Source of the DNA: Chytridium lagenaria
Lineage: Eukaryota; Chytridiomycota; Chytridiomycetes; Chytridiales; Chytridiaceae
Direction: 5' to 3'
Assembly (NCBI GenBank): GCA_025449115.1
Contig: JAHLKC010000123.1
Coordinates: forward strand, 1 to 64,000
Length of the DNA: 64,000 nucleotides
The position numbers were made by a program, and so were the translations under genes. This document shows positions 7,214 to 31,794 of this stretch, piece by piece. A model generated the notes under the pieces. That model was not told the DNA's origin, ran no database searches, and saw nothing but the letters and a program-made list of their open reading frames with translations. The number at the start of each line of letters is the position of its first letter. Positions within the stretch are counted from its first letter, which is position 1.

Positions 7214-7219
7214 CGCTTC

Positions 7220-9740: not shown

Positions 9741-9750
9741 GTCGTCAGAG

Positions 9751-11698: not shown

Positions 11699-11706
11699 AG
11701 GATTTC

Positions 11707-13563: not shown

Positions 13564-14081
13564 TCTCCCAAAGGCGATAGCCCAGCGGTTCATACCCACA
13601 AGAGCACAGCGTCGTGCATAAAATCTCCCTTCTTTCGTTGTTGCTTAGGTATCAAGACGAGCACACGGCAACCCCATCCACGAAGTCTTGACAAGTCAGG
13701 TTTTACTCCAGCGAATCTCTCAAGCGGTGTTGCATCTTGTAAGTTCGTTCGGGTTGGTGATCGGTTAATGAGGTAAGCTACAGCCATCAGGGCTTCACCC
13801 CAAAACCGCGTTTCGAGTTTTGATAAGCTTAACATGCTTTTAGACCTCTCGTTCAAGGTCCTGTTCATTCGTTCAGCAACTCCGTTCTGTTGCAGTGTGT
13901 ATGGCATGGTGAAGGTAAGTCGAATCCCATGCTCTAAGCACCAATCCATCATCTGTTTGTTGTTGAATTCGCCACCGTTTTCTGCCACGATTTCAATGAG
14001 TTTCCTTTTGATTTTCTTCTCGGCTTCTTCTTTAAAACTTTTGATGTACTTGAACGACTCATTCTTCTTCTTTCACAGGTA
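13564..14081 (-). pseudogene. Copia integrase fragment, unit 1
   Basis: Minus-strand integrase core of the A family, opening MAENGGEFNNKQMMDW, with NGVAERMNRTLNER and FWGEALMAVAYLINRSP. The Pro of the usual YTPQQN motif is Leu here, and Thr-Asp before the second aspartate region is altered. The fragment ends at the truncated LTR junction on one side and unrelated DNA on the other, so it is a dead fragment. It is repeated at 27,458-27,976. Confidence 0.8.
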
Positions 14082-14157
14082 ATTTCATCTATCATACTAT
14101 AATTGTCGTGCTTGACTTTGCCCTTCTACTGTCAATGTATGCCGTCCAGTTACTCGG

Positions 14158-14464
14158 TGTTGGGTTTCGCTCACTTGACTCACAAGAACGCGTCAGGATC
14201 ACTCGCACCATTAGTCCGCGGCGTCAGGCGCAACACTAGAGTGCTCTGGAATTTACGCGTCGTTAGAGTTGAGCGCGAACGCGCCGACTGGACTTCTCAT
14301 TTACATTCTGGACTCATTTGAATTTCCCACTTTGATTTACCTTCCTTGATTGGTTTATTTTCTTTATGGCAGTTTAATTATATTTCTACCTGTTTGTGAT
14401 TGGACATTCTCTTCTAGCCTTTATTCCCTTTGTTCCCGTCAAGGCTCTCTGATTTGTTTATCTT
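14158..14464 (+). repeat. Partial B-family LTR, unit 1
   Basis: Starts TGTTGGGTTTCGCTC, the reverse complement of the B LTR, and runs to 14,464, where the last about 200 bases are missing together with 60 bases of flank. The complete LTR is at 28,053-28,557 in unit 2. Confidence 0.85.
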
Positions 14465-16391
14465 AAGACTTTAGAGCCCTCCATGTCTTGATTTAACCTA
14501 TTCAAACCCGTGTGGGTGAACGTCTTGGGCTTCCTCTTTAGAACTGGATTCGATTGCCCACCTTTGATATGTTGTCCTAACACTTTTCAAGCCATTATTA
14601 CATCATATTTTAAATGTTCCGTCCCTCAAAGCCTGGTTGGCCCCGAAAACTTCTAAAAAAGTAAACAGTCTTAGGCATGATGAAGTTGACTTCCTTCTGT
14701 GAAACTACGGCTCCTACCACGTATCCGAAGATATGGTAGGAGTTTTGATAGGACTAGTACCTTCTAATGGTACATAGAACGTCTACACATAAATGAATAA
14801 AGTTTAGTGTATTTCACAAAGATAAACAATGTCCAGAGTATAAAGTAAGTGGAACTCAATGATTATCAGCATTCCAAAGGAAAGATAAAGGGAATAAGGG
14901 TGGATACAAGCACGTGACCAGAAGGAAGAGATACTTAGCTGCGGTATTTTCAAGTAAGTCTTCCTACAACCATTTTTGCCCATTCCGTCAATCATCGTGG
15001 CGGTAAAGGCGTTTCCTTAGCGTTCCCAGTGCTAAGGGCAGTCTCTAAACCCGAAATGACGATAACGAGGGGAAGCTGCGTTGATACTCCATCTCAACGG
15101 CCGCGAGCCGAAGGGGGTTTGCTGATCGGGGCTTTGCAGCAGCCGATCACCCAACGCCACGGAACATACGCGGTGTGTCTGAGGACCCGACGGAGGCACT
15201 TCTGGTAAGATTACTTGGTACTAACCTTGGTGCCAGAGGTAGGCGCGTGTGTATATGAGAAGACCTGGACCTGGACCTGGACATTACTGGGGACAGGTTT
15301 TGGGATGGACAACTTCTCTATCTTTATTTGTAAAACCCTCTCGCTCAACATAAACATAATAAATAATAAATAAACATATAAACAGTGGGTATAAATGAGC
15401 GAGGGGAAAAAGAAAAGATATGTACAAAATAAAACAAAGTCCCAAGATACAAAAGGGCGGTAAACAGGGAAACCAGACGGCGACATATATACAATGCCGT
15501 GGGAAAACCTGAATACCGTATAAGTAAGTAAAGACTTACCATGACAAATCCTAAAGACTTTGTTAGTGTACAAGCAGGAGGGGTAAAAGGAAAAGCCGTA
15601 CATATAGCATCTTGGAAATATGCTTACAGTGAAATATCATTTTATTGAATATTTCACACTTCGCCCTGGAAGTTTAGCCAAGGCATTCTTGGCTACCTTA
15701 GGGAAAGTCACATCCTCTTTTTCGCATATGCAATTGCGCTGCACTAAATAGTTTCAACGGGGGAGTTAACCCTTATATAATGAAAGGATGTTCTGAGTTG
15801 TTAACGCTGGACACGGCACAAGGTTGGACAAAGTTTGGCAATAATTTCGTTTGCAAACGGTTTGCAAACACGACGGTTGCCGAGACGGCAATGTTGCAAC
15901 ATCGTTTGCAACAAATTTAGCAACACCAAAATTGGTTTTGGAAGCGTTCCATTGATAGACTTCACCTCCACATCGTTACGTAAAAATATCAATAAATTAT
16001 GGTGAAAAAAAAGTAGAGATAGCAAAATAAATTTTTAATTATTTACACAGGAAAAAAGAAAAGAAAGTATAATATATTATATAATGTTGAAATTAATTAC
16101 TTACGCAGGAAAAAAGAAAAAAATATATTATGATTTGATGTTCAATCATACTGAACAACCAAGGCAAGCTAGAAATGAAGTTAAGAAGGCTTTTCGCCGC
16201 AACCTACACCCACCTCCTCACATTGTGAATTAATCACTAATTGATTCGGCGTTCCTCATTTCTAGAATTACCAAGCAAGCACTGAGATCTCAGAAGGGCA
16301 TTTCGCCGCGACATACTCCCGTCTCCTCACGTCGTGCTCGGGACACTGACTAATTTGACGACACACTGTACTTGTTGTTATTCATAATGAC
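14465..16391. other. Gene-free stretch in unit 1
   Basis: No gene is supported. It holds a short GGACCT hexamer run near 15,263, AT-rich DNA, and a degraded copy of the GTTTGCAAAC palindrome cluster (about 15,848-15,917). Short ORFs here differ between the two duplication units by frame-breaking single-base changes, so they are not conserved as proteins. Confidence 0.6.
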
Positions 16392-16460
16392 TGATTCAAC
16401 CAGGACTCGAACCTGCGACTTCGTCCTCCGAACATTCGGGATTACTACTGAACCTTAATC
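16392..16460 (-). pseudogene. tRNA-like sequence, unit 1
   Basis: Minus strand carries a T arm (CAGG-TTCGAGT-CCTG) with a good pol III B box (GGTTCGAGTCC) and a 7-bp acceptor-like pairing. One base pair's worth of sequence is missing from the anticodon stem relative to the copy at 30,562-30,631. Probably a tRNA pseudogene or tRNA-derived SINE. Confidence 0.45.
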
Positions 16461-17026
16461 GCTTCTTAAGAAACTTTGTTCGAGACAATATATATAGAAC
16501 AAACCAGCCTTCGCCCTAGTGCCCCGGCGCTGGAACGAAGACCCTGAAGATACAAGGGGGTCGCGCAGCGTTGACGTTTTCAACGCCGCCAAGAATATAC
16601 TGGACGCTGCAGAACATGAATTTGCCATAGGATTAGAACATTTTTTTTATTTATATGCGTTTGAACTTGCCATATGCGAATGAAATTGCAATAAGCTTAA
16701 TAAAAATACATTGGCAATTCTCAGATGGTGACGTCCGGAAGGTCTTGTGGATATCGTTTGTGCGATGTAGCATGCAGGACGGCAACGAATTTTGTATCCA
16801 GTGACACCGTATACGGTCCCATGAACTTCTGTGAGTGCGGAATTCAAAAACGATGACGATCACAGATCCTACACCGAGTTCATCCGTGAACTGTTCGTGT
16901 TCCTGAATGTGGGCAAAGTTGAGAGTTTCTCGGCAGTCGTATATTGGTGCTAACAGGAGTTAGTTATAGTAATGACATGGATCCAACCTTTGTCAAATGA
17001 GGCAAATTGAAGTCCTCCGTTTGACA

Positions 17027-17493
17027 TTAGGAAAACCGGGTTATCGAGAAGTATACCAACGTAAGAAAACAGACGATGCATCTCTGTGTGAGCAAATAAG
17101 CTAAGCGAAACGAGGTATTGAGACACAGCTCTGTTTGACGAGGTTGTTGAAAGTTGCTTTGGTCGTTACGATGCCCACGTTGAAAAACTTGATTGCAGTG
17201 TGGTGGATGCACAACCGCGACCAAACGAAGTTAGCGTGTTCCGGGATTTGATTGATGTTGGAGAGGCTGGGTGTTCCTTTTAAGTTCATCAAGGCTTGAA
17301 CACGACTATGGTTGTTATCTGGATGCATCATGTGGTTTTTACCGTTGAACATTTTCATGAAGAACGTCTGGGATTGTGCCGGGGATGTCCTGCGCTCGGG
17401 TGGTTGACCGTATTCAGCAATGAAGAACGGCATGATGTTTATGGTTGTTTGTAGCAGGTAACGAAAGTGGCTGTTTATAATGTATTTATGCAA
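17027..17493 (-). pseudogene. Companion ORF of the helicase fragment, unit 1 (frameshifted)
   Basis: Same protein as the 182-codon frame at 31,131-31,679, but broken into two frames by one-base deletions near 17,160 and 17,400. It includes the conserved piece RRTSPAQSQTFFMKMFNGK. Product not recognised. Confidence 0.4.
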
Positions 17494-17607
17494 TTCATGT
17501 GGTTATTGGGATCTGTGATTTCACGTGGTTATTGGGATACATGTGGGTAAGTGGAATAGAATAGCAACTTTTTGTATTTATTGCAAATATGCTTAATATA
17601 CATTTGG

Positions 17608-18760
17608 TTATTCTTTGCAATTCTTCACCATCTCGCTATAAAAAGTATGGAGAGCAACTGGGAAATAATTCCAGATTTCATTTTCAGTTTTGTGGGCAAG
17701 GCTTTGAATACGGTGAATTTCGGCCACAATGTCTGATGAGGGCTTCACGTCCACGGTCGCTCGTGGAATGTCGTCATCAATGAGGATAAGACTCGAAGCT
17801 TCTTGCTCTTGAAAGAATTGTGTAGATCTCATTGAAGGAAAGTCGTTGCTTTTTGCCATGGTAAGGGTGGTTAGAACTTTGTCATTGACTGCCTTGGCAA
17901 CGGTAGATGGTGAAAGCGTCGCGGGTACCAAACAGAATTGACGTCTTGTTGCCGATACAGAGTGCGCTTTCCTTGAGTGTCGTTGTATGACATGCGAATG
18001 GAACGATGCAGCGGAATGAGAGAAATAGTTCGTTTCTGTCGTCTGTGGATCGGGCCATCTTGCTGGTAGATTGTGAGCTGGTGAATGGAGCCGTACTTCT
18101 AGCCATTCCGGTAGTCTGTCTGGGTAGACGTTTTCGTTCCTACAAGGTTTATTTTTCGTTTTACAAGTAAAGTTGGACCTGTTGGTGGGTGATAACCTGA
18201 CGGGTACGAAATCTAACAAGAGTACATTTTGTCGATTGCTGATGTTTAGTTCAGGCCGAGGTTGTTGGTAACGATGTATTCGTGACCTTCTTGGAGAGGA
18301 AGCAGGGTGGGAAGATCCGAGGTTTCCGTATCCGACAAGTTCTGTTTTGATATTGCAGTTTGGCGATGGTTGCTGGAGAGAGATTCCCTGCGCGATCTTC
18401 AGCAATAATCCAGTGTACAGGAGTTTCTACGGACGCTCTGGCTTCCACAGACTGAACATTGAAGTTGATTCGTATGGCGTTGTAGGGAATGATGAAAGGA
18501 GCTTGCTGCCATTCCGCCTCCGAGAGAATTGTTGGATGATGACGAAGACACCGTGAATTCAGCTTATCAAGATGGATTTGTGACACGAAACCATTCCGGA
18601 AATTCGACAAAAACAAAGCATAGTCTGTTGAGCATCGATAATTTTGTTAAGCACGGCCGCGTGTGGTATCGTTCGCCATGTCGTTAGTCCTTCTGTAGTT
18701 GGCGTTTGGCGGTGGTTGGCAAGATTCACATGAAGATTAATTTGGATACAAGGGCTGCCT
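17608..18760 (-). pseudogene. SF1/Pif1-like helicase C-terminal fragment, unit 1
   Basis: Counterpart of 31,795-33,015, here split among at least four frames by single-base deletions. The late helicase motifs are still visible: FTIYRCQG (the motif with Q-G that contacts nucleotide and DNA) and the segment ending LILIDDDIPRATVDV. No N-terminal Walker A (GKT) was found in the window, so it is a 3' fragment of a helicase gene or helicase-bearing transposon. Confidence 0.55.
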
Positions 18761-19336
18761 TGTAAGTGTTAGTACCCGTCCCAAAAAAACTTTTTAAAAA
18801 AAATCGCAAAAAGTTACTTGGTTTCGAACATGTGACATAGTCCTAGTTTTCTCCCGTTTTACCATCCACCCTCAAGGGTATTCGTAGACATTATGGAGCT
18901 AAATTCATCATACCCGTACGAAAATCATGCGGATCACGTGATCTCCGCCCCAGCCAGTTGGCGGTGCGTCCAGTATATTAACAAGAGGGTAGCGCTGCGT
19001 GGACGGTGCCCACGCCGCAGAGAATATACAAGACGCCCCCGCCCCCGCCTTGTATGATGGTGATAGTACTTAGCAACAGAATATTATATTCATTTTTACA
19101 TTCTTTTAACATTGCATCATAAAATATCTTTACAGATGATGGGAAGAATCGCCAGATTTCCTTTCCGTCCTTGTCAAATCACAGCACATTTCTTTACAGA
19201 AGGTATCTTCAAAAGATAAGGCAGTTGATGGGTGGAATTCTTCGTCATGTCAACCGGAGGAATCATGGATCAATGGTTGTTGAGATGGTGGATGAAGTTT
19301 TGCAGGAGTCGGCGGAGTACATCATGGAGACCGGAT

Positions 19337-19501
19337 AATCTCCTGAATTCACTCTACTCAGGAGAACTCCATTGTGTTACACAACGTCCGGACAAAGTCG
19401 GACATTGTGTACACAAGGAGTCGAGGAGTGGAGAAAATGAAGACATCTTCTTCATTTTATCCAACTCAACTGCACCAGACCGTGCAGTCAAGTTGCTTTG
19501 T
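19337..19501 (+). repeat. Split direct repeat A1
   Basis: 165 bp, begins AATCTCCTGAATTC and ends GTTGCTTTGT. It starts with an imperfect hairpin (TCTCCTGAATTCACTCTACTCAGGAGA) and is followed by ACGTCCGGACAAAGTCGGAC. Same as 25,167-25,331. Confidence 0.93.
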
Positions 19502-19525
19502 TTCTTCGCTCTCCTACGATCGATC

Positions 19526-21194
19526 ATGGATCCCCCCCGCCTGCCCCACTTTTAGACGCTCACTTGACGACCTGGGACGGCGTCCTCGTGAGCGTCCTTC
19601 CGTATGCTTCTTTGAAGACTATAGCCACCTCTATTGGTATGCCCCGTCCCTGGCCAAAAGCTTTGATCGCTATGCGTCCTCGCATCATGACGGCCCTCTC
19701 CGCGATCGTTCCTCGTCCTGCGGTGGATCCGGTAACGAACCTTACTCCTTTCCTGTCTCCAGCTATTCCGATCCCTCCACCCCTTAATGGGGGTGGTGGC
19801 GTTGGTGTGGGTATTGCCGGCATTGGCGTTGGTGTTGGCGGTGCTGGCAACGGCGTTGACGGTGATGGCGGTAATGCCGGCGGCGCCGTCAATGGCGCTC
19901 ATGGTGGCGACGCAGGTAATGGCGCTCATGGCGACGACGCCGGTAACGGCGGTCACGACGGTCGAATCGGTTTGGGAAATGCCCTTAACAACGATAACGG
20001 GGTTCCGGATGCCCTCGCCATAGCCCGTCGTGAATTGGAAGAGGCTGCTATGATTATCCGAGCCCATCAGGATCGTATAGCTGCCTTGGAACGGGAGAAA
20101 CAGCTAGCTCCACCGTCTATTCTACCCCACATTCCCCCAGCCACTGTCATTGATATTGGTCAATTTATTAGGGACAACGATGTTTTTTCTACTGACCCGT
20201 TTACCCCTGTAAGTATTTACTCTTTCCTTTATTACATCTCCTTGTTCTCTCTATTTCCACCTTTTTTCCTTTCCCATTGTGTGGGATTTTTCACTTCCTG
20301 GTGCATGATCCTTTGCACTTCTACCTGGTCATCAGCCAGCGCCTTGGTTATATCTAGCCATTCCCTCCTTGCTCTTGACTGCCTCTACCACCTTTCTTCC
20401 TGGCCTACCCCCTGCCAGCCTTTCTCGGGCACACCTTTTGCTCGCGCCTGACACACCCCCGTCAGTTCGCCTGGTTTTCTTTTGACCAGTTCCTCCTCAG
20501 CCCCACACCCCTTGGGCTCCACCACCTCACAGCGATTGTGCTAACTCTCAATCCCTGCATAGCATGTGTCTATCTATACGCAAGCTTTGCGTACCTTTCG
20601 GTCGGAAGCTACCGAGTTCCTCCGTTCTGGTGACAGGGAACTTACTCCCACCTGGTTACGCTCACGCGAGGGCCTTTTCAGCCGCCTCACTACCCTCCAC
20701 GATGTGGGGGTTGACTGCCTTTGCCTCTCCCCCTCTCAATCCTCCGCCTGGAAAACGATCCTTAACCGGTCCCTTTTCCGCCTTGCAGATGGGGAATTCC
20801 TGCCGCTCCGCAACGAACTCTCCGCCATCATCTCTCTGTTCGGCTGGCTGGTTCCAAATCCCAACGCTTCCCTTTTGGCCGCTGCCATCTTACAAGAGTC
20901 ACGCCAGTTGGGTAATGCGGTGAAGATTACCCAAACTCGTCGCCTTGCTCAGACCCCTTATGAACGCCCTACTTCTACTTATGAACGCCCTACTTCTAAG
21001 GGTTCCATGGAACCCCGCAGCGACTTTATTCCTCTTCTGAAATCCTCCGGGGACTCCCGCACTAAACCTTCGACGGAATTAAACATCTGTGGCACTGCAA
21101 ACGGCGTGGTCATTATGGCCGGGATTGCACTCACCGTTGTTCCAAGCCCAGCGCTACTAGTGTGGTGTGTGCCCGTCTTCGTTGTTCTGTTTAA
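19526..21194 (+). CDS. Gag-like protein of the YR retrotransposon
   Basis: Likely start is the ATG at 19,526, followed by a run of seven C; one more C would place it in the long open frame that begins at 19,498. Residues about 95-150 are a Gly/Ala/Asn/Asp repeat, then a predicted coiled coil (LAIARRELEEAAMIIRAHQD). An intron fits exactly at 20,209-20,562: donor GTAAGT, branch GCTAAC, acceptor CATAG, phase 0 on both sides. Exon 2 continues HVSIYTQALRTF and ends with a CCHC zinc knuckle (CX2CX4HX4C, residues CGT-CKRRGHYGRDC) near 21,085-21,125; one base is missing inside the knuckle. Stop at 21,192-21,194. Gag role is inferred from position and knuckle. Confidence 0.75.
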
Positions 21195-21363
21195 ACCTCT
21201 ACCCGGTTAATTGTATTATTTGCATTCACTTTAATACATCCGAGTTTCCACCTTACCATGTGTTTCATTTTTCTCTCCCGCCCAGCTTCCCGTCCCAACT
21301 TCATGGTGTTTTTCTGACGGTACCTCCACGCCACCGCCGGATCGTTCCACTTTAACTTCCCAC

Positions 21364-23562
21364 TTGTCGGATCTTCTTACGGGGACTACTCACGCTTCTC
21401 CTCACGACATCCCGTTTCCCAACCCGTCGGAATTTGTGGCCGGTTGCGTGAATGCTTCTACTCTCCCCATGTGGGAGGAGGTCTTGGCGTACTCTCCACC
21501 TCCCGAGGCCGATTTAATTCGTCGTTGGGTGTCTGAAGGGATTAGGGTTGACGATTTTCTTCAACCGTTTGACGGGGTTTACCGTGGTCGCCATTATCGT
21601 GGTCCTACTCCACCTCGCGGGGTCGCTCCCTCATACCCCGTTCCCCCCGCATTCACCGATTTTGTTGAATCCTCTACTCTCAAGGACCTTCGTTCTGGGG
21701 CCCGTCGCATCTTAGGCTCCGTCTCCGCTGGCTTTCCTTCTTCCCTCCATATGGTCAACCCAATTCTTATCGAACCTACGAAACCCCGGAAATGCGATGA
21801 TTGTACCCTCCTCAATTGCTGGATGCGCCCCTTACCTTTCACCATGGAGGGTATCCAATCTCTGACATATTGGACCGCCCCTTCCGCCGCCGTTGTCGAC
21901 ATCGCCAGTTGTTTTAACAACATTCCCTTACACCCGTCCAGCTACAAGTACTTCGGCACAATCGCGACCATTGACGGTGTTGAATCTTATCTCGTGTCAA
22001 CCGTTTTGGTATTCGGTTGGTCACCTTCACCCTACATTACTCAAACAATGGCCATCGCCCTCACCTGTTACGTTCGCGCATGGAAGATCCCCGCCTTAAT
22101 CTGGATCGACGACGCCGCTATTGGTCCATCTTTAACCGCTACTTGTAACTCCGCCTGTGCCGGAGCGGACGCTACCACCATTTGGTGCCTTGTTTGCATC
22201 CTTTCGGGTTACTACGTCTCTCTCTCCAAATCTGTTTTTACCTCTTCTCCGAAGTTCCGTTTCCTCGGGTTCCTTGTCGACCTGACCTCCCGCACTTTTT
22301 CTATCCCTGACGATAAGCGACTCACCTTTCTCACCATGGCTTCCCATCTCTTGTCTCTCCACTCCGCTCCCCTTTCTCTTCTGGAAAGTTTTGCGGGCAA
22401 ATGCGCCCATTTTTCTCTCATTATCCCCGGTGGCTTATCATTTACTCGCCTCCAATATATGGCCATTGCCGCTACCCGCCTTTCTCTCCCATCCCCATCC
22501 TCAAACACCTCTACCGTTACCGTTCCTCTTACTTCGTCTCTTCAAGGCGAGCTGGCCCTCTGGCGGTCTCTGGTTACGGCAAACACCCCTTATCTGTGGG
22601 CTACCTCCGCTCACCGCATCCTAACCGTCCGCACCGACGCTAGCAACACCCGGTGGGGTGGTCATCTCTACTTATCTGCACCCATTCCTTCCCCCGCTCA
22701 TCCCTCTTCACCCCTCACCTTCATACCTTCTACTCGCGACCTTCAAGCCGGTGGTGACTTGGAACCCAGCCTACTGCCCGCTTCCGGCTCCTCTATTAAT
22801 CTCCGTGAAGCTGTGGCCTGCCGCCGTACTTTGGAGGCGTTTCTTCCCCATCTCTCTCGCGTTTTTGTGGATGTCTATGTTTCTCCGTCGTTGGCTTCCG
22901 CTCTGCGGTCCCCTACTCCACGCGATTGGTTGGATATTGGTGTCGATAATTCCGGCTTGTATCAGGCTCTTGTCAAAGGCTCCTCGCGCTCTCTCGCTAT
23001 CAACTCTGAAGTCCGTCGTATTTTCGAACTTGCTCGAGATTCCGGTTTACGCTTGTCCTTCCACCATGTTCCCGGTGTTCTGAATGTGGAAGCGGACACA
23101 ATCTCGCGTGAGTCCTCCGATGGGGATTATTCTCTTACCTTATCTGCCTTCAATCGTATCCTCTCTTGTCACGGTCCTTTCACGATGGACGCTATGGCGA
23201 CCCCTCTCACCGCTAAACACTCCCGTTTCCTATCGAGATACCTTTGCTCCGAGTCCGCGGGTACCAATTTGTTTGCTTGGTCTCCTTCCCCCGACCTTCC
23301 CCGTGAGCATTTATACGTTTACCCCCCTTTCACCCTTCTTAAACCCACTGTTGATTTTCTTATATCTCTTCCTGTTTCCTTCACTATTGTTGTCCCGCGT
23401 TTACTACACTCTTGGTGGCTCCCTCTTACTCAGGCCGCGACTTCGTCGTGGAAATTGGGCTCCCGGGGTGAATTCCTCATCGAGGGATATTGTAAGACTG
23501 CCCGCACACTTACCCCGTTACCTCTCCCGTATGATTTTTGGGTCTTTCACCGTCCTTACTAA
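21364..23562 (+). CDS. Reverse transcriptase / RNase H of the YR retrotransposon
   Basis: Intact 732-codon frame. The first codon as read is TTG; the frame stays open upstream to a possible splice acceptor (CGCCCAG, 21,287), so Pol may be joined to Gag by splicing. RT blocks: KPRKCDDCTLLN (about 140), VVDIASCFNNIPLHP (175-190), FGWSPSPYITQ (217-227) and the active site WIDDAA with aspartates 249-250 (the first residue is Trp rather than Tyr). RNase H acids: D425 (RTDASNTRWGG), E482, D528 and D578 (VEADTISR). The C-terminal domain (TMDAMATPLTAKHSRFLSRY ... VVPRLLHSWW) is the one that follows RNase H in DIRS-order elements. Confidence 0.9.
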   Translation: MSDLLTGTTHASPHDIPFPNPSEFVAGCVNASTLPMWEEVLAYSPPPEADLIRRWVSEGIRVDDFLQPFDGVYRGRHYRGPTPPRGVAPSYPVPPAFTDFVESSTLKDLRSGARRILGSVSAGFPSSLHMVNPILIEPTKPRKCDDCTLLNCWMRPLPFTMEGIQSLTYWTAPSAAVVDIASCFNNIPLHPSSYKYFGTIATIDGVESYLVSTVLVFGWSPSPYITQTMAIALTCYVRAWKIPALIWIDDAAIGPSLTATCNSACAGADATTIWCLVCILSGYYVSLSKSVFTSSPKFRFLGFLVDLTSRTFSIPDDKRLTFLTMASHLLSLHSAPLSLLESFAGKCAHFSLIIPGGLSFTRLQYMAIAATRLSLPSPSSNTSTVTVPLTSSLQGELALWRSLVTANTPYLWATSAHRILTVRTDASNTRWGGHLYLSAPIPSPAHPSSPLTFIPSTRDLQAGGDLEPSLLPASGSSINLREAVACRRTLEAFLPHLSRVFVDVYVSPSLASALRSPTPRDWLDIGVDNSGLYQALVKGSSRSLAINSEVRRIFELARDSGLRLSFHHVPGVLNVEADTISRESSDGDYSLTLSAFNRILSCHGPFTMDAMATPLTAKHSRFLSRYLCSESAGTNLFAWSPSPDLPREHLYVYPPFTLLKPTVDFLISLPVSFTIVVPRLLHSWWLPLTQAATSSWKLGSRGEFLIEGYCKTARTLTPLPLPYDFWVFHRPY

Positions 23563-23622
23563 ATTCTGACTTTTCTTCTTTGACAAAATATATTACTTCT
23601 TTTCATCTCTTCCCACTTTCTC

Positions 23623-25026
23623 ATGGTTCCCAACTCCCGCCCTCCACCGTCCTGTGGATGCTGTGCATCCCCATTACAGGTCTCGTACAGTTTCTGCCCC
23701 GCCTGTGGCACTCTTGTTCCCACGGCACACCCTACCTCTCCTCCGCTGGCTCCGACTCCTTCCTATGTCTCTCACCGTCGACAAGCATTCCATGTTTCTC
23801 TACAGTCACTACCCAAGACCATCCTCAAAGACCGTACCTTGTCGGCTTTCACTTCCTACCTCTCCTCTCTTGACCCTCCTGTTTCCCTGCCGTTAGCTAC
23901 TCCTTCGACCGTCGTTGATTTCTTGATCTCTAAGGATATCACAGCTAACACCCAATACCATCATTCTTCTTGCCCCCACCGCGGCGCCGCCACACCCCAA
24001 CACCGTCTCTTGGACACTTGTGGCCCAGCGTGCCCAAACCCATCATCCTGCCCCCACCGCTCACATGCCTCCACCGTCCGTTTACTCTGTCCCATCCGGG
24101 CAGCTCCTGCTTCCATCGCACGCCATATTAGTTTGTTAAAAACCGCTCTCCACGCGGCTGGTTTCGTCGACCCTTGGTCCCCGGTCTCCTCCTCAGGCAA
24201 CCCGGCTGATTCCCTCCTTGTATCCCAATACCTTTCTTTCCTCCAACGTGAAGGCCAGGCTGCTCTTCTGGCTCCCGTTCAAGCTACTCCCGTCTTCCCT
24301 TCTACACTCTCGACGGCCATCACCTTTTGGCGATCGGTGGCTTCCCGTGCCTCCCTCCATCGTCCTGTGGAAGGCCTCTATACCCGTCTCATCGCTTTGC
24401 AAAACATCGCATTCTGTCTTCTCACAGCGGCAGCGGGCTACAGAGGTGGCGATATTACTCGATTGGATCCCCAGGCCGTTACTTGGCTTCCTGACGGTTC
24501 GGGTCTCCACATCGCGTTATTTACGGGTAAAACCGTTAAAGCCGGTACGGTGGAACGTATTGCGGTTCTGTTTGACCCCAACCCCGCTCAATGCGTCATC
24601 TCCGCTCTCCGTGCCTATGCAGAGGAATGCCACACCGTCGGCCTTTCCCTTATTGGTGGTCCTTTTGTCTTTCCTTCCCTTACTCCGAATACCCATAATC
24701 CCCGCCGCTCCGCGAGCTACCGCGCTTTCCAATCTCGCTTCAGTGCTGCTTTACAGGCCACTACCGGCTACAACAACGAGACCATTCACGGTTTACGGGT
24801 GGCTACCGCCATCTCGACTGTCATCTCCGACGACCGCATCCCTCTCGTCATGTCTGCCGGCCATTGGCGCTCCGCTACCACGGCTGCTCGCTATGCTCAG
24901 CTTTCCGCCGCGGTCTCTCCTTCCTCTCAACGTGCGCTCTCCGATTGGCAACGCGCGTTAGTCTCCTGGAAAACTCACCTCCCGTCTTTCCTGTTTTTTA
25001 ATCAACTTACCTTTCAACCCCAATAA
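23623..25026 (+). CDS. Tyrosine recombinase of the YR retrotransposon
   Basis: Intact 467-codon frame with an ATG start. The catalytic set is complete: R274 (AAGYRGGDITRL), H389 and R392 (TIHGLRVA), H414 (SAGHWRS) and nucleophile Y424 (AARYAQL). It would integrate a circular double-stranded DNA form by site-specific recombination. The N-terminus has a zinc-ribbon-like pair, C11-X2-C14 and C25-X2-C28, and a further Cys/His-rich stretch at 117-148; these are not part of the standard YR fold. It starts 60 bases after Pol ends. Confidence 0.92.
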   Translation: MVPNSRPPPSCGCCASPLQVSYSFCPACGTLVPTAHPTSPPLAPTPSYVSHRRQAFHVSLQSLPKTILKDRTLSAFTSYLSSLDPPVSLPLATPSTVVDFLISKDITANTQYHHSSCPHRGAATPQHRLLDTCGPACPNPSSCPHRSHASTVRLLCPIRAAPASIARHISLLKTALHAAGFVDPWSPVSSSGNPADSLLVSQYLSFLQREGQAALLAPVQATPVFPSTLSTAITFWRSVASRASLHRPVEGLYTRLIALQNIAFCLLTAAAGYRGGDITRLDPQAVTWLPDGSGLHIALFTGKTVKAGTVERIAVLFDPNPAQCVISALRAYAEECHTVGLSLIGGPFVFPSLTPNTHNPRRSASYRAFQSRFSAALQATTGYNNETIHGLRVATAISTVISDDRIPLVMSAGHWRSATTAARYAQLSAAVSPSSQRALSDWQRALVSWKTHLPSFLFFNQLTFQPQ

Positions 25027-25122
25027 ACTTCTCTTTCTTTTCCTTGTTTTGAGCATTGGTCCTCTCCCTGGGCTTCATCTTTGGGGGACTTTGAGCATTG
25101 GCGAAAGCATAGCCTGCCCGCT

Positions 25123-25166
25123 CGAGGCCTTTTTCTCCAGAGCTGAATATCGGAGATAATAGGCAT
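25123..25166 (+). repeat. Split direct repeat B1
   Basis: 44 bp, CGAGGCCTTTTTCTCCAGAG to GATAATAGGCAT, directly abutting A2. The junction GGCAT/AATCTCC is what would form if the two outer ends of the element were joined in a circle. Confidence 0.92.
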
Positions 25167-25331
25167 AATCTCCTGAATTCACTCTACTCAGGAGAACTCC
25201 ATTGTGTTACACAACGTCCGGACAAAGTCGGACATTGTGTACACAAGGAGTCGAGGAGTGGAGAAAATGAAGACATCTTCTTCATTTTATCCAACTCAAC
25301 TGCACCAGACCGTGCAGTCAAGTTGCTTTGT
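25167..25331 (+). repeat. Split direct repeat A2
   Basis: 165-bp copy of A1 located inside the element near its 3' end, between B1 and the pyrimidine-rich spacer. Confidence 0.93.
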
Positions 25332-25587
25332 CCCACCACCATCCCCTTTCCCCTCCTTTTCTCTTTCATGCCGCTTTGTCTTCCCACACCCTGGCTCCCT
25401 TTCCCTCCTCCCCTTCCCTCCTTTATCTTTTCTGCTTTTTCCTTTCGATTCATTCACTCCTTCTTTCTTTTATTCTATTTCTTCTTTTATTTACCCGCAT
25501 TGTGCTTTCAGCCCCGGGTTCAATCCCCGGGTGCCAGTGTGTGGTTTTTCTCTCTGGTCTCGCTTCGGGCTCTTTTTAGCCCGCCTG
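25332..25587 (+). other. Pyrimidine-rich spacer between A2 and B2
   Basis: About 256 bp, strongly C/T on the plus strand, no coding signal. Contains a hairpin at about 25,511-25,532 shaped like a tRNA T arm (CCGGG-TTCAATC-CCCGG) with a perfect B-box match GGTTCAATCC. It would be transcribed as part of the 3' end of the element RNA. Confidence 0.6.
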
Positions 25588-25630
25588 CGAGGCCTTTTCT
25601 CCAGAGCTGAATATCGGAGATAATAGGCAT
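25588..25630 (+). repeat. Split direct repeat B2
   Basis: 43 bp, one T shorter than B1, ending ATAGGCAT at the right junction with host DNA (TATCTTCAAAG). Confidence 0.92.
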
Positions 25631-27227
25631 TATCTTCAAAGACGACTGGGACGCTCCTTGGGAAATTTTGAGATAAACATATGTGAGCATGATGGTGAGC
25701 GTGGTGGAGTTCTTGTTGATGCAATTTAAACTTGGATAGTTACCACTTTCCGCGTTTCAGAAAGTCAGAAGGTGTGGTTGACGAGGACCACTTGTGAAGA
25801 ATTACATTATTCACATGGCCAATGGCTCATAAGGACATTTTGCCTAAGTCCGTTGAGTTCCGTTATATCCCGCGTTGACGTGTATATTTACGCGTCATAT
25901 TGAATCCTCCCTTCTTTTCCCTTTGGGTTTTTATATATACTTTTTCCCCACGTTTATAGGGTTTTTATTGAAGGAGGTGGCGCGCATATGTGCCGTTTAT
26001 GTGTGTGTGCATATGTTGTGTCTGTTATTTATTTGTATTATGTGTATTACTTTAATATGAGAGATTTCTTGATTTAATTTGTACCTTGTTGAATTAAGTA
26101 GTTGATATTGAGTTGATCCCCTATCCTCTATCACCACGCGCGTGGCCTCGCGGCGTGATCTCCCCTTCACTCTTAGTTGGATGACAGTCGACCCCTCTGC
26201 CCCCTTACCACCTGGTGAAGCTGCAATCCGGCCGTTTGAGATAGAAGGCTGTGGTGGAACCCCTCCTCATTCACAGTGTCCTTTAGTCAAGGCTTGGTCA
26301 GCTACATTCCACCTCTGGCGCTCTCCGACCCGATGATCAGGCGCTAATGGCAGGCAATGAGTGAGGTTACCCTGTTCTAAGCTCTGAGAGGCAAACGAGA
26401 GCCCATGTTCCAAAAGGTGCCATAGTAGGGTGGCATGGAGACTTATAGCCATCCCCGATCGCCTGGAGACGATCTGGTGCTGATATTGGTTTAGAAGCAA
26501 GGTAAGTCGATAATGAAGATACTAAACACGTTCCCTTCTCCCTTAAATAAGCAGAATCTCGCGATCACTCACCCACACCATCGCCAAACAACAACAACAT
26601 CACTTAGATTCAGGAGTACATCCTGTCCCTAGGTGCTCTGTGGACTTGCTCTGCTGGAGCAACTCCTTTACTCTTCTCCCCTACCCCCTAGTCGAAGCTA
26701 GGTAGGGAGGGATGGGTCAAGAGAAGATCACACACTGCTAGACTTGAGCGTGGGCATAAGGCTGGTCGTATTGTTTATCTTGTCTTTTTGTTGATGTCGT
26801 TTTTGAAGAGAAATGATCTATTGTATATTGTTGATATGCGTCGAGCTTAAAGTAATATATTGTTGCAAGTGCATATGTGCTTTTTATTCAATGATGGCAT
26901 ACAGCAATGTTCGATATTCTTTCTTCATGCAGTGAAGTCTGGAGCGTAGGAGAGCGGTCCAATGCTGGCTTGGGTCTGGTGGAGAACAGCTACGTATTGA
27001 GTTTCCAAAGAGACGGTGTGTTGGGCAAGCCCCCTGTGGTGCTCGCGAAGTTGAAAGACCATTAATGAGCACCACCAATCCGGGACCAAGTTCCTCCGTT
27101 ATTTCCGTGAATGTCGGATTTTTTTGAAGTTGAAGGTTTCAAGGCAATTGTAAACGTTAGAAGGCATCATCACAGAATAAACAAACTGTTGGGTCTTGCG
27201 CCTATCACGATCTGAAGTGGTAGCTGT
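25631..27227. other. Right part of unit 1, no gene recognised
   Basis: Near-identical to 33,545-35,144. Small ORFs (for example 26,142-26,336 plus) are preserved in both units but resemble nothing known, and the identity extends equally through non-coding sequence, so conservation is no evidence of coding. It is probably the 5' part of the Harbinger element and its flank. Confidence 0.5.
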
Positions 27228-27440
27228 TAAGTATCTCAACAATATCCTACTACTTTGGGAATGTTTTGACCGCACTCCTAAAGCTTGAAGAAATTCACGT
27301 TCATCTGCCACCTCCCGACGTTGGTATCCATAGGGTCTTTACTAAATAACAAAATGCATTTCGATTGAAGTACTTTAAAGACTGCATCGGTGCCCTTGAT
27401 GGTACCCATATTCCCGTCGTGATCGACAAAAAGGACCAAG
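27228..27440 (+). pseudogene. Harbinger transposase, 5' remnant in unit 1
   Basis: Same as 35,145-35,355: the SISTISYYFGNV helix, LPPPDVGIH, then YFKDCIGALDGTHIPVV with the first catalytic aspartate. Cut off at the unit junction, so only the first acidic residue of the DDE triad is present. Confidence 0.7.
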
Positions 27441-27457
27441 ATTAGCTCCCTGTCACC

Positions 27458-27976
27458 TCTCCCAAAGGCGATAGCCCAGCGGTTCATACCCCACAAGAGC
27501 ACAGCGTCGTGCATAAAATCTCCCTTCTTTCGTTGTTGCTTAGGTATCAAGACGAGCACACGGCAACCCCATCCACGAAGTCTTGACAAGTCAGGTTTTA
27601 CTCCAGCGAATCTCTCAAGCGGTGTTGCATCTTGTAAGTTCGTTCGGGTTGGTGATCGGTTAATGAGGTAAGCTACAGCCATCAGGGCTTCACCCCAAAA
27701 CCGCGTTTCGAGTTTTGATAAGCTTAACATGCTTTTAGACCTCTCGTTCAAGGTCCTGTTCATTCGTTCAGCAACTCCGTTCTGTTGCAGTGTGTATGGC
27801 ATGGTGAAGGTAAGTCGAATCCCATGCTCTAAGCACCAATCCATCATCTGTTTGTTGTTGAATTCGCCACCGTTTTCTGCCACGATTTCAATGAGTTTCC
27901 TTTTGATTTTCTTCTCGGCTTCTTCTTTAAAACTTTTGATGTACTTGAACGACTCATTCTTCTTCTTTCACAGGTA
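27458..27976 (-). pseudogene. Copia integrase fragment, unit 2
   Basis: Copy of 13,564-14,081 with the same LTR/integrase junction. One base longer near 27,492, which changes the frame beyond the integrase part. The apparent 201-codon ORF here is integrase joined by chance to the Harbinger reverse strand across the duplication junction, so its tail is not real protein. Confidence 0.8.
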
Positions 27977-28052
27977 ATTTCATCTATCATACTATAATTG
28001 TCGTGCTTGACTTTGCCCTTCTACTGTCAATGTATGCCGTCCAGTTACTCGG

Positions 28053-28557
28053 TGTTGGGTTTCGCTCACTTGACTCACAAGAACGCGTCAGGATCACTCG
28101 CACCATTAGTCCGCGGCGTCAGGCGCAACACTAGAGTGCTCTGGAATTTACGCGTCGTTAGAGTTGAGCGCGAACGCGCCGACTGGACTTCTCATTTACA
28201 TTCTGGACTCATTTGAATTTCCCACTTTGATTTACCTTCCTTGATTGGTTTATTTTCTTTATGGCAGTTTAATTATAATTCTACCTGTTTGTGATTGGAC
28301 ATTCTCTTCTAGCCTTTATTCCCTTTGTTCCCGTCAAGGCTCTCTGATTTGTTTATCTTTGTAGTGGAGAGTTCAACGCGTGAGTGTACGCGTCTCCGAT
28401 AGGTTTACCTTTGTGTTGTCTTTCCTCTTTACTTGTTCGTTTTGTTTCAGTATTTAAAGACTCGTGTGTTGAGTCGAAGTAAATTAAGAACGTTGTTCGA
28501 GCAAAAGTGCGTTTAACTTTGTTTTAATTGAGCCCCATGAACAACAAGTATTCAACA
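28053..28557 (+). repeat. Complete B-family solo LTR, unit 2
   Basis: 505 bp, TGTTGGGTTTCGC to AAGTATTCAACA. Contains four ACGCGT hexamers. Flanking pentamers CTCGG and CTTAG match at three positions only, so a target duplication is not clear. Unit 1 has lost its right part together with flank up to the equivalent of 28,615. Confidence 0.88.
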
Positions 28558-28615
28558 CTTAGAGCTTTGGAAGGATGCGATGATTCCAACTCCAACAGGT
28601 TGTACTAAACAGTGG

Positions 28616-30561
28616 AAGACTTTAGAGCCCTCCATGTCTTGATTTAACCTATTCAAACCCGTGTGGGTGAACGTCTTGGGCTTCCTCTTTAGAACTGGAT
28701 TCGATTGCCCACCTTTGATATGTTGTCCTAACACTTTTCAAGCCATTATTACATCATATTTTAAATGTTCCGTCCCTCAAAGCCTGGTTGGCCCCGAAAA
28801 CTTCTAAAAAAGTAAACAGTCTTAGGCATGATGAAGTTGACTTCCTTCTGTGAAACTACGGCCTCCTACCACGTATCCGAAGATATGGTAGGAGTTTTGA
28901 TAGGACTAGTACCTTCTAATGGTACATAGAACGTCTACACATAAATGAATAAAGTTTAGTGTATTTCACAAAGATAAACAATGTCCAGAGTATAAAGTAA
29001 GTGGAACTCAATGATGATCAGCATTCCAAAGGAAAGATAAAGGGAATAAGGGTGGATACAAGCACGTGACCAGAAGGAAGAGATACTTAGCTGCGGTATT
29101 TTCAAGTAAGTCTTCCTACAACCATTTTTGCCCATTCCGTCAATCATCGTGGCGGTAAAGGCGTTTCCTTAGCGTTCCCAGTGCTAAGGGCAGTCTCTAA
29201 ACCCGAAATGACGATAACGAGGGGAAGCTGCGTTGATACTCCATCTCAACGGCCGCGAGCCGAAGGGGGTTTGCTGATCGGGGCTTTGCAGCAGCCGATC
29301 ACCCAACGCCACGGAACATACGCGGTGTGTCTGAGGACCCGACGGAGGCACCTTCTGGTAAGATTACTTGGTACTAACCTTGGTGCCAGAGGTAGGCGCG
29401 TGTGTATATGAGAAGACCTGGACCTGGACCTGGACATTACTGGGGACAGGTTTTGGGATGGGACAACTTCTCTATCTTTATTTGTAAAACCCTCTCGCTC
29501 AACATAAACATAAATAAATAATAAATAAACATATAAACAGTGGGTATAAATGAGCGAGGGGAAAAAGAAAAGATATGTACAAAATAAAACAAAGTCCCAA
29601 GATACAAAAGGGCGGTAAACAGGGAAAACCAGACGGCGACATATATACAATGCCGTGGGAAAACCTGAATACCGTATAAGGTAAGTAAAGACTTACCATG
29701 ACAAATCCTAAAGACTTTGTTAGTGTACAAGCAGGAGGGGGTAAAAGGAAAAGCCGTACATATAGCATCTTGGAAATATGCTTACAGTGAAATATCATTT
29801 TATTGAATATTTCACACTTCGCCCTGGAAGTTTTAGCCAAGGCATTCTTGGCTACCTTAGGGAAAGTCACATCCTCTTTTTCGCATATGCAATTGCGCTG
29901 CACTAAATAGTTTCAACGGGGGAGTTAACCCCTTATATAATGAAAGGATGTTCTGAGTTGTTAACGCTGGACACGGCACAAGGTTGGACAAAGTTTGGCA
30001 ATAATTTCGGTTTGCAAACGGTTTGCAAACACGACCGGTTGCCGAGACGGCAATGTTTGCAACATCGTTTGCAAACAAATTTAGCAACACCAAAATTGGT
30101 TTTGGAAGCGTTCCATTGATAGACTTTCACCTCCACATCGTTACGTAAAAATATCAATAAATTATGGTTTGAAAAAAAGTAGAGATAGCAAAATAAATTT
30201 TTAATTATTTACACAGGAAAAAAGAAAAGAAAGTATAATATATTATATAATGTTGAAATTAATTACTTACGCAGGAAAAAAGAAAAAAATATATTATGAT
30301 TTGATGTTCAAATCATACTGAACAACCAAGGCAAGCTAGAAATGAAGTCTAAGAAGGGCTTTTCGCCGCAACCTACACCCACCTCCTCACATTGTGAATT
30401 AATCACTAATTGATTCGGCGTTCCTCATTTCTAGAATTACCAAGCAAGCACTGAGATCTCAGAAGGGCATTTCGCCGCGACATACTCCCGTCTCCTCACG
30501 TCGTGCTCGGGGACACTGACTAATTTGACGACACACTGTACTTGTTGTTATTCATAATGAC
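28616..30561. other. Gene-free stretch in unit 2
   Basis: No gene supported. It holds the GGACCT run (29,415-29,433) and a cluster of GTTTGCAAAC palindromes with a TTGCCG/CGGCAA hairpin at 30,010-30,076. AT-rich at 30,130-30,300. Confidence 0.6.
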
Positions 30562-30631
30562 TGATTCAACCAGGACTCGAACCTGCGACTTCGTCCTCCG
30601 AACATTCGAGGATTACTACTGAACCTTAATC
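30562..30631 (-). pseudogene. tRNA-like sequence, unit 2
   Basis: 70 nt. Acceptor-like pairing GATTAAG with TTGAATC (one mismatch, one GT pair), discriminator A, T arm CAGG-TTCGAGT-CCTG, B box GGTTCGAGTCC, and a CCTC/GAGG anticodon-type stem. The D arm is poor and U33 is absent, so it is unlikely to work as a tRNA. A tRNA pseudogene or tRNA-derived SINE head is the better reading. Confidence 0.5.
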
Positions 30632-31130
30632 GCTTCTTAAGAAAACTTTGTTCGAGACAATATATATAGAACAAAACCAGCCTTCGCCCTAGTGCCCCCG
30701 GCGCTGGAACGAAGACCCCTGAAGATACAAGGGGGTCGCGCAGCGTTGACGTTTTCAACGCCGCCAAGAATATACTGGACGCTGCAGAACATGAATTTGC
30801 CATAGGATTAGGAACATTTTTTTTTATTTATATGCGTTTGAACTTGCCATATGCGAATGAAATTGCAATAAGCTTAATAAAAATACATTGGCAATTCTCA
30901 GATGGTGACGTCCGGAAGGTCTTGTGGGATATCGTTTTGTGCCGATGTAGCATGCAGGACGGCAACGAATTTTGTATCCAGTGACACCGTATACGGTCCC
31001 AATGAACTTCTGTGAGTGCGGAATTCAAAAACGATGACGATCACAGATCCTACACCGAGTTCATCCGTGAACTGTTCGTGTTCCTGAATGTGGGCAAAGT
31101 TGAGAGTTTCTCGGCAGTCGTATATTGGTG

Positions 31131-31679
31131 CTAACAGGAGTTAGTTATAGTAATGACATGGATCCAACCTTTGTCAAATGAGGCAAATTGAAGTCCTCCG
31201 TTTGACATTAGGAAAACCGGGTTATCGAGAAGTATACCAACGTAAGAAAACAGACGATGCATCTCTGTGTGAGCAAATAAGCTAAGCGAAACGAGGTATT
31301 GAGACACAGCTCCTGTTTGACGAGGTTGTTGAAAGTTGCTTTGGTCGGTTACGATGCCCACGTTGAAAAACTTGATTGCAGTGTGGTGGATGCACAACCG
31401 CGACCAAACGAAGTTAGCGTGTTCCGGGATTTGATTGATGTTGGAGAGGCTGGGTGTTCCTTTTAAGTTCATCAAGGCTTGAACACGACTATGGTTGTTA
31501 TCTGGATGCATCATGTGGTTTTTACCGTTGAACATTTTCATGAAGAACGTCTGGGATTGTGCCGGGGATGTCCTGCGCTCGGGTGGGTTGACCGTATTCA
31601 GCAATGAAGAACGGCATGATGTTTTATGGTTGTTTGTAGCAGGTAACGAAAGTGGCTGTTTATAAATGTATTTATGCAA
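31131..31679 (-). CDS. Companion ORF of the helicase fragment, unit 2 (unknown)
   Basis: 182-codon open frame, possibly starting instead at an internal Met in a neighbouring frame (MPFFIAEYGQPPERR). It has RRTSPAQSQTFFMKMFNGK and a Cys/His pair in WSRLCIHHTAIKF. It lies about 115 bases downstream of the helicase fragment on the same strand, so the two may belong to one former mobile element. Not recognised; the frame survives in unit 2 and is broken in unit 1. Confidence 0.4.
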   Translation of the reverse strand: MHKYIYKQPLSLPATNNHKTSCRSSLLNTVNPPERRTSPAQSQTFFMKMFNGKNHMMHPDNNHSRVQALMNLKGTPSLSNINQIPEHANFVWSRLCIHHTAIKFFNVGIVTDQSNFQQPRQTGAVSQYLVSLSLFAHTEMHRLFSYVGILLDNPVFLMSNGGLQFASFDKGWIHVITITNSC

Positions 31680-31794
31680 TTCATGTGGTTATTGGGATCT
31701 ATGATTTCACGTGGTTATTGGGATACATGGTGGGTAAGTGGAATAGAATAGCAACTTTTTGTATTTATTGCAAATATGCTTAATATACATTTGG

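What the first reader, a model, noticed from the sequence alone, without database searches (positions are those of the whole stretch)
19337..25630. Complete tyrosine-recombinase retrotransposon with its own empty site in the window
The sequence shows A1-ORFs-B1-A2-B2 split direct repeats (165 bp and 43/44 bp), an intact RT/RNase H frame and an intact YR frame with the full R-H-R-H-Y set. Unit 2 of the duplication has the uninterrupted target. Left junction (GACCGG-AT-AATCTCC), right junction (AGGC-AT-TATCTTC), internal B1/A2 junction (GGC-AT-AATC) and empty site (CCGG-AT-TATC) share only AT. This fits recombination of a circle through an AT crossover with no target duplication, as known for DIRS-order elements. 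Few elements give such a clean before/after view, and near-identity of A1/A2 suggests recent insertion.
Basis: partly seen in the sequence, partly recalled or inferred. Interest (0 to 1): 0.8.

Follow-up and report, generated by a model that had tools for sequence, protein, structure and literature searches.

The report
Chytrid retrotransposon with strand-biased insertion signature
A chytrid fungus carries a family of jumping genes that insert with a recombinase, and in the insertion sites read here the same six-base piece always ends up on the same side, a rule so far described for some bacterial mobile elements.

Summary
Window 19,336-25,629 (6,294 bp) is a split-direct-repeat tyrosine-recombinase (YR) retrotransposon, and its empty site is in the tandem duplicate at 33,543|33,544. 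The host assembly is Chytridium lagenaria. RT/RNase H, a methylase-like region, and a YR with an ALOG-type zinc-ribbon domain make it, by structure, a Pat1-like (DIRS-order) element. Such ALOG elements were described from Ectocarpus and marine animals; my searches listed no report in fungi. The genome gives 23 ALOG matches.

The B|A attachment site has imperfect inverted arms around a 6-bp spacer, and the exchange lies at the spacer's right edge. The element's spacer is at the right end (23 of 23 right ends; one deviates at its last base) and at none of 15 left ends. Beyond the last base the target shows no spacer homology. Four filled/empty comparisons show no gain or loss. This matches the strand-biased rule reported for bacterial SE elements. 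Whether one strand is exchanged or repair is biased cannot be told from sequence.

The parts
19336..19501 (+). A1, left part of the split direct repeat; element begins at T 19,336 (exchange point 19,335|19,336)
   Evidence: 166 bp identical to A2
19441..20208 (+). gag-like frame, first part (start codon unclear)
   Evidence: open frame; protein similarity to other copies at the same place
20209..20562 (+). putative spliceosomal intron inside gag (GTAAGT ... CTAAC ... TAG); length 354, flanking frames 19,441 and 20,563 agree
   Evidence: donor motif in a matching context in L032 (same insertion as the window), L043, L044 and L045 of 9 copies checked; acceptor-like string just before the second gag frame in L031 and L033
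20563..21128 (+). gag-like frame, second part, with CCHC-like zinc knuckle 21,088-21,128 read over two frames in this copy
21235..23562 (+). RT (D222, D292, D293), RNase H (D468, E525, D571, D621), methylase-like C-terminal region (about 23,173-23,559)
   Evidence: RVT_1 1.7e-07; invariant residues in alignment A2; the relative P0004 hits Dam at 3.2e-06 over the aligned region
23623..25026 (+). tyrosine recombinase: N-terminal Cys4 ribbon, ALOG-type domain with inserted zinc ribbon (23,827-24,102), catalytic domain R275 K304 H390 R393 H415 Y425
   Evidence: ALOG_dom 3.2e-08 over its cut-off, Phage_integrase weak 0.047 under its cut-off; place of ALOG match; alignment A1; motifs located
25123..25165 (+). 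B1
   Evidence: 43 bp, one-base length difference to B2
25141..25180 (+). internal B1|A2 junction: copy of the presumed circle attachment site, arms GGAGATAA / TAATCTCC around spacer TAGGCA (25,160-25,165), exchange point 25,165|25,166
   Evidence: inverted-repeat centre at -3; folds as a hairpin on either strand
25166..25331 (+). A2
25588..25629 (+). B2; element ends at A 25,629 (exchange point 25,629|25,630)
33538..33549 (+). empty target site in duplicate unit 2, ACCGGA|TTATCT, exchange point 33,543|33,544
13547..27440 (+). duplication unit 1, interrupted by the element
27441..35355 (+). duplication unit 2, uninterrupted
2649..2779 (+). copia-like sequence that is an unoccupied paralogue of the target used by the C213 copy (exchange-point bases G|T)

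Best explanation
It is a Pat1-like, ALOG-bearing DIRS-order retrotransposon of Chytridium lagenaria. SHOWN: the element is bounded by split direct repeats; the internal B1|A2 junction is an imperfect inverted repeat with a 6-bp spacer (clear in the window's group, weak in some others); insertions add or remove no target base in 4 of 4 comparisons; the exchange falls at the right edge of the spacer, so the element's spacer ends up at the right end and not at the left; the target resembles the element's right half-site but not its spacer. INFERRED: RNA is copied into a circle in which B2 abuts A1, with B1-A2 as the template that restores the ends; the YR, steered by its ALOG-type domain, pairs this site with a weak genomic site (A|TWA-like); only the exchange of one strand (the bottom, first-cDNA strand) is inherited, because the heterologous spacer blocks or outlives a normal second exchange. 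The insertion sites thus carry a strand-biased signature like that of bacterial SE elements.
For: Repeats, frames and junctions. ALOG, RT and methylase-like assignments. Junctions from 12 insertions with both ends, 3 further left ends and 11 further right ends (recounted). Inverted-repeat centre at -3: 87 of 156 pairs in 12 chosen sequences, against a maximum of 66 at any centre in 2000 shuffles; six representatives 44 of 78, next centre 30. Spacer homology at chance (13 of 50 positions without the last, null mean 12.5) but right half-site 35 of 60 against 16.0, none of 5000 draws as high; 10 of the 12 complete copies used. Filled/empty pairs: window, C56 tandem array with 5 empty units, C12 against C254, C213 against copia-like paralogues. 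SE rule in PMC10214605, passages read.
Against: Of 20 B1|A2 sequences scanned, -3 is the best or tied-best centre in 11 and not in 9: L031 (B1 with an indel) and the L043/L044/L045/L046/L048 and L050/L051/L053 groups. In one search these groups score only 3-6 of 13, so the spacer length is best supported in the window's own group. One right end (C55) reads TAGGCC; in C5 the B2 spacer differs from its B1 by one base; C213's B2 lacks 3 bp beside the spacer. That the left six bases are target DNA is shown only where an empty site was found (4 of 12), and in C213 the paralogues differ from it at 2 of the 6 bases. One left-only end (C56:183k, AAAACA) matches the spacer at 4 of 6. Final sequences cannot show DNA intermediates, and biased mismatch repair would leave the same trace. 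The copies in the symmetry test are related.
Confidence: 0.7

Rival explanations
1. One reading: a double-stranded circle recombines through a shared AT dinucleotide (or the 3-bp identity of the DIRS1 model) with ordinary two-strand exchange.
For: In the window all four junctions share AT; 11 of 15 left ends have A and 15 of 23 right ends have T at the exchange point. The 3-bp identity model is stated for DIRS1 in PMC3266345 (passages).
Against: Only 6 of 12 fully read insertions have A|T in the target; G|T in C213 agrees with 4 of 4 unoccupied paralogues inspected. Identity around the point falls to one base.
Confidence: 0.12
2. Two-strand exchange with a 6-bp heteroduplex, always repaired in favour of one strand, for example because the circle carries nicks or gaps in its second strand.
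For: Gives the same end products; the SE intermediate is reported as a nicked double-stranded circle (PMC10214605 passages).
Against: Needs the same repair direction in 23 of 23 right ends; well-studied YRs usually need spacer identity for the second exchange (recalled). Not excluded by sequence.
Confidence: 0.3
3. Unit 2 is a site from which the element was precisely excised, not an ancestral empty site.
For: A YR could in principle recombine the two ends and restore the target (inference).
Against: Three other filled/empty pairs lie in unrelated contexts: a tandem array, a copia-like family and C254. Excision would leave the same sequence, so this is not decided for the window alone.
Confidence: 0.08
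4. Linear cDNA captured by end joining or homology, without a role for the YR.
For: No target duplications.
Against: Fixed exchange point, conserved inverted arms and significant half-site preference in the target are not expected of end joining.
Confidence: 0.02

Closest known systems
ALOG-bearing DIRS1-type retroposon (Iyer and Aravind 2012, PMC3537659; passages read)
   Same: YR with N-terminal zinc ribbon, ALOG domain with inserted zinc ribbon and catalytic domain; RT+RNase H with inactive adenine-methylase domain; terminal direct repeats of similar length (159 bp in Ectocarpus)
   Different: Known there from Ectocarpus and marine animals; here in a chytrid fungus, 6.3 kb instead of little over 9 kb, with explicit A1-B1-A2-B2 repeats and insertion sites
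Pat1-like elements, 'echinoderm form' (PMC4157794, section 7 read; PMC3266345 passages)
   Same: Split direct repeats, methylase-like domain, gag zinc finger, YR in the same direction; the window's internal repeats lie downstream of YR
   Different: RT phylogeny not tested. That the echinoderm form has its repeats downstream of YR is inferred from the contrast with the nematode form
Ngaro retrotransposons (for example Cafeteria, PMC8547959 passages)
   Same: A1-ORFs-B1A2B2; isolated A-B repeats
   Different: Ngaro lack the methylase domain (PMC3266345, PMC4157794); no ALOG domain is mentioned in the passages read
Bacterial strand-biased circularizing integrative elements, SE (PMC10214605 passages)
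   Same: Six-bp spacer between imperfect inverted motifs; circle spacer placed at attR, target's six bp at attL; made by tyrosine recombinases
   Different: DNA elements of Gammaproteobacteria, median 15.7 kb, moved as DNA circles; works alike, not a member
DIRS1
   Same: Order, YR, no target duplication, methylase domain
   Different: Inverted terminal repeats and 3-bp identical junction (PMC3266345 passages)

Membership tests
YR retrotransposons (DIRS order) | RT plus RNase H and tyrosine recombinase instead of DDE integrase | tested here: met
   RVT_1 and catalytic residues; Phage_integrase only weak (0.047, under cut-off)
PAT (Pat1-like) | Split direct repeats A1-B1-A2-B2 | tested here: met
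PAT (Pat1-like) | Methyltransferase-like domain | tested here: met
   By homology only: the window protein has no Dam hit; the aligned region of P0004 hits Dam at 3.2e-06 (27.4 bits, cut-off 28.1), P0005 0.0016 and L050 0.0019; P0008, P0009 and P0011 have no Dam hit
PAT (Pat1-like) | Zinc finger in Gag | tested here: inconclusive
   CCHC-like knuckle present but split over two frames in this copy
PAT (Pat1-like) | RT/YR phylogenetic position with PAT | not testable with these tools
   The only named hits in three protein searches are from C. lagenaria itself
Ngaro | No methylase domain | tested here: not met
   methylase-like region by homology
DIRS1-like | Inverted terminal repeats with internal complementary regions | tested here: not met
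   Terminal repeats are direct. An inverted-repeat search of the element (20 nt and over) gave 4 pairs, none terminal; the best is a palindrome inside A pairing with its own second copy
ALOG-type retroposons | YR with ALOG domain carrying zinc ribbon | tested here: met
   PF04852 over cut-off in window, L043, L050 and P0006, not in the annotated models P0001 and P0003 (P0003 lacks the region); 23 matches in the genome; profile A1 best solved match LSH3 8p5q 0.0016, while the single sequence found none
SE elements (works like) | 6-bp spacer goes to right end, target's 6 bp to left end | tested here: met
SE elements (membership) | DNA-only bacterial element without reverse transcription | tested here: not met
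   RT frame and fungal host

The most novel reading that the evidence does not exclude
A eukaryotic retrotransposon that integrates by exchange of one strand only: the minus-strand cDNA circle, single-stranded and folded at the B|A hairpin or double-stranded and nicked, is joined by its ALOG-type YR to one strand of the target and completed by replication, as with integron cassettes (recalled) or SE elements.
Probability: 0.25. Interest if true: 0.85.

Novelty: new variant of a known kind. Interest (0 to 1): 0.6.

Why it matters
How YR retrotransposons integrate rests largely on inference. This genome offers many related families with filled and empty sites, and gives a sharp rule: a 6-bp spacer without target homology that goes always to the same end. 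It makes one-strand against two-strand exchange testable. It also places ALOG-type recombinases, the proposed source of plant ALOG regulators (PMC3537659), in a fungus with open frames and defined DNA sites, so the DNA that such a domain recognises can be studied.

Tried and rejected
AlphaFold2 on the YR with a 6-row alignment gave mean pLDDT 37; unusable, so no fold search was run. The third protein search, with an RT alignment, returned no named reference elements, so no tree was built. The single YR sequence found no solved structure.

Rows dropped before counts. One search (A-start pattern) listed 22 perfect and 31 one-mismatch places, with 16 control matches: the perfect matches at C29 and C42 were dropped as chance because the next bases do not continue A; C84 as a short fragment; the one-mismatch places were not followed, except C216, already known. 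One search (B pattern) listed 13 perfect and 19 one-mismatch places, with 13 control matches: C55 and C148:77,948 were new and used; of the one-mismatch places only C140 and C243, already held, were used. C34 was dropped from the junction counts because its right side is rearranged and its left flank is that of C132; C185 was counted with C138 (99.5% identical); C329 with the window. Of 20 B1|A2 sequences, 12 were used; the 8 left out are close relatives of rows kept, L031 among them, which does not show the centre. The null tests used 10 copies, before C148 and C243 were added; for all 12 the spacer match is 24 of 72, or 15 of 60 without the last base.

The search for donors of the right flanks of L043 and L049 found only the loci themselves.

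Considered and rejected: Ngaro (methylase-like region), DIRS1-like (no inverted termini), Crypton (RT present), chance repeat (of 20 fetched loci, 9 show both the A and the B pair in the same order, 2 the A pair only and 7 the B pair only).

Full report
OBSERVATION. The sequence at 19,336-25,629 has the order A1 - gag-like - RT/RNase H/methylase-like - YR - B1 - A2 - B2. A1 and A2 are identical over 166 bp; B1 (43 bp) and B2 (42 bp) differ by one T. The insertion splits one unit of a tandem duplication (13,547-19,341 with 25,629-27,440, against 27,441-35,355). The other unit reads through at 33,543|33,544. Contig C329 holds the same left flank and a 99.8% identical element that runs off the contig end; its outer flank departs from the window's, so it is another copy of the filled locus, a haplotype or duplicate. 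Over the 2.2 kb before the insertion unit 1 differs from unit 2 in 29 columns, 27 of them bases missing from unit 1, which suggests assembly errors in this stretch; statements on broken frames need that caution.

HOST. The three proteins found by similarity to the YR are named Chytridium lagenaria, and their contig lengths (409,809; 115,925; 72,134) equal those of C19, C132 and C172 in the window's assembly of 41.9 Mb. The window is therefore from that species.

PROTEINS. RT matches RVT_1 and keeps the D and DD residues of RT and the D-E-D-D of RNase H as invariant columns with six other sequences: five unnamed database relatives and another family of this genome. Its C-terminal region aligns with the part of P0004 that hits Dam at 3.2e-06, slightly under the curated score; the window protein itself has no such hit. 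The motif reads YPPF instead of the D/N-PPF of active enzymes (recalled), so it is probably inactive. The YR carries an N-terminal CxxC..CxxC ribbon, an ALOG domain (3.2e-08, over the curated cut-off) with an inserted Cys/His ribbon, and R275, K304, H390, R393, H415 and Y425. L050, a distant family, has Q and A where the two His stand. The profile of six YRs finds the plant ALOG protein LSH3 (8p5q) as its best solved match at 0.0016; the single sequence finds none. In the whole genome 23 places match ALOG at E <= 0.001, each rated over the cut-off alone or with frame neighbours, and a YR search gave 85 match pieces; both counts are lower bounds by the tool's own words. The gag-like frame contains a likely 354-bp intron whose donor motif stands in a matching context in L032 (the window's own insertion), L043, L044 and L045 of nine copies checked.

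JUNCTIONS. I read both ends of 12 insertions: the window, C45, C213, C56 (72,557), C19, C132, C105, C12, C164, C172, C148 and C243 (the last a solo A-B; in C148 the A2-B2 interval is interrupted). Three more left ends (C56:183k, C45:256k, C22:23k) and 11 more right ends (C56:161k, C138, C216, C52, C5, C320, C63, C12:297k, C22:102k, C140, C55) were read; C56:183k and C56:161k could be the two ends of one interrupted copy. All 15 left ends start with the element's T and none has the element's spacer before it (at most 3 of 6 bases agree in the complete copies, 4 of 6 at C56:183k). All 23 right ends keep a spacer of the element's type: in 19 of the 20 with a B1 of their own it is identical to that of B1 (C5 differs by one base); of the three without B1 read, C55 reads TAGGCC. 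The base before the point is A in 11, G in 3 and C in 1 of 15 left ends; after the point it is T in 15, C in 3, A in 3 and G in 2 of 23 right ends. A|T occurs in 6 of the 12 complete cases. So AT is a preference, not a rule.

FILLED AGAINST EMPTY. (i) Window units 1 and 2. (ii) The C56 copy sits in a tandem array of about 357-bp units with five uninterrupted units beside it, reading ...CACGTGA...CACGCAA or ...CACGTAA|TTTTTTGTT. (iii) The C12 site is unoccupied on C254, 238 of 241 columns identical. (iv) The C213 copy lies in a copia-like family; 39 of the 40 places listed (40 of 136 candidates scored) are paralogues that span the join, one of them at window 2,649-2,779. The four inspected read G|T at the point, though their six bases before it differ from the C213 left end at two positions. 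In (iv) the left end has the target's G and the right end the element's A, so the point lies between these two positions. No case shows gain or loss of target bases. The other eight complete copies have no empty site in hand; for six of them one search listed none, and C148 and C243 were not searched.

ATTACHMENT SITE. Around the B1|A2 junction many copies form an imperfect inverted repeat centred 3 bp left of the exchange point. Of 20 sequences scanned this centre is best or tied-best in 11. Summed over 12 chosen sequences 87 of 156 pairs match, against at most 66 at any centre in 2000 shuffles, and the next real centre has 61; six representatives give 44 of 78, next 30. Support is strong in the window's group (8-10 of 13) and L052 (8), moderate in L042/L047 (7) and weak in L043/L045 (5-6) and L050/L051 (3-5). 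This defines arms and a 6-bp spacer (TAGGCA in the window), the usual layout of YR sites (11-13 bp arms, 6-8 bp between; PMC3212892 passages). The exchange point is the right edge of this spacer. The 59-nt site folds as a hairpin on either strand (-9.3 and -9.5 kcal/mol; none of 200 shuffles as low).

WHAT THE JUNCTIONS SAY. In an ordinary two-strand YR exchange the spacer becomes a heteroduplex, and replication should give both arrangements. Here the element's spacer is at the right end in 23 of 23 and at the left in 0 of 15; in the 12 complete copies left-end and element spacers agree in only 24 of 72 positions. If both arrangements were equally likely, 23 of 23 has a chance of about one in eight million (my arithmetic). 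The spacer needs no homology (13 of 50 without the last base, chance 12.5; with it 21 of 60 against 15.2, P 0.06), but the target resembles the right half-site (35 of 60 against 16.0, none of 5000 random draws). Thus one strand's exchange is inherited. In YRs studied so far the right-edge cut is on the bottom strand (recalled); that is the strand of first-strand cDNA. Whether this means true one-strand exchange or repair directed by nicks cannot be told from sequence.

COMPARISON. The same placement rule (circle spacer to attR, target's six bp to attL) is reported for SE elements of Gammaproteobacteria (passages of PMC10214605), which are unrelated in content. For DIRS1 the stated model is recombination at an identical 3-bp sequence (PMC3266345 passages). 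Structurally the element meets the PAT definition of PMC4157794 (section 7 and passages), and its domain set is that of the ALOG retroposons of PMC3537659 (passages), reported there from Ectocarpus and animals. A 2013 survey found no YR retrotransposons in two chytrids (PMC3783388 passages); a 2023 review repeats the known fungal groups without chytrids (PMC10386755 passages), and PMC7928374 speaks of Mucoromycotina (passages). My searches for ALOG with YR in fungi (one paper, the 2012 one), YR elements in Chytridiomycota (one paper, 12 of 75 listed) and strand bias, heteroduplex, empty sites or circular junctions in YR retrotransposons (13, 0 and 2 papers) showed no report of these findings; of most hits I saw only title and start of abstract, and nothing outside that library was searched.

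VERDICT.

Noticed in passing
L049 (C34:221000-230900) against L043 (C132:97000-106500): Both share the left flank and element at 97.5%, but C34 ends at B exactly at the exchange point and continues into DNA that is unrelated to C132's right flank, without A2-B2. The internal B1|A2 site may have been used as a recombination site, giving a chromosomal rearrangement.
   Followed up: partly
L040 (C243:1-9500), A-B at C243 about 762-1286: Solo A-B flanked by other DNA at both exchange points, comparable to a solo LTR.
   Followed up: partly
window 20,209-20,562: Likely spliceosomal intron inside the gag of a retrotransposon, with the donor kept in other families; genomic RNA would have to escape splicing.
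   Followed up: partly
window 19,380-19,463 and the same in A2: Short inverted repeats in A (TTGTGT..ACACAA twice, GTCCGGAC, and a 35-nt near-palindrome found); possible promoter or protein-binding elements.
   Followed up: no
window 17,100-19,335: Duplicate unit 1 lacks many single bases that unit 2 and C329 have, probably uncorrected sequencing errors.
   Followed up: partly
window 2,014-11,905 and 27,278-27,967 (minus): Several broken frames that look copia-like by eye (no family search run); one stretch is an unoccupied paralogue of the C213 target.
   Followed up: partly
window 39,357-41,209: Tandem array with a period of about 90 bp inside an open frame with GPEHHTPK-like motifs.
   Followed up: no
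L035 (C56:70500-80000); L036-L039: A tandem array of about 357-bp units hosts one insertion; the fetched stretches of C138/C185, C216 and C52 also hold tandem repeats.
   Followed up: partly
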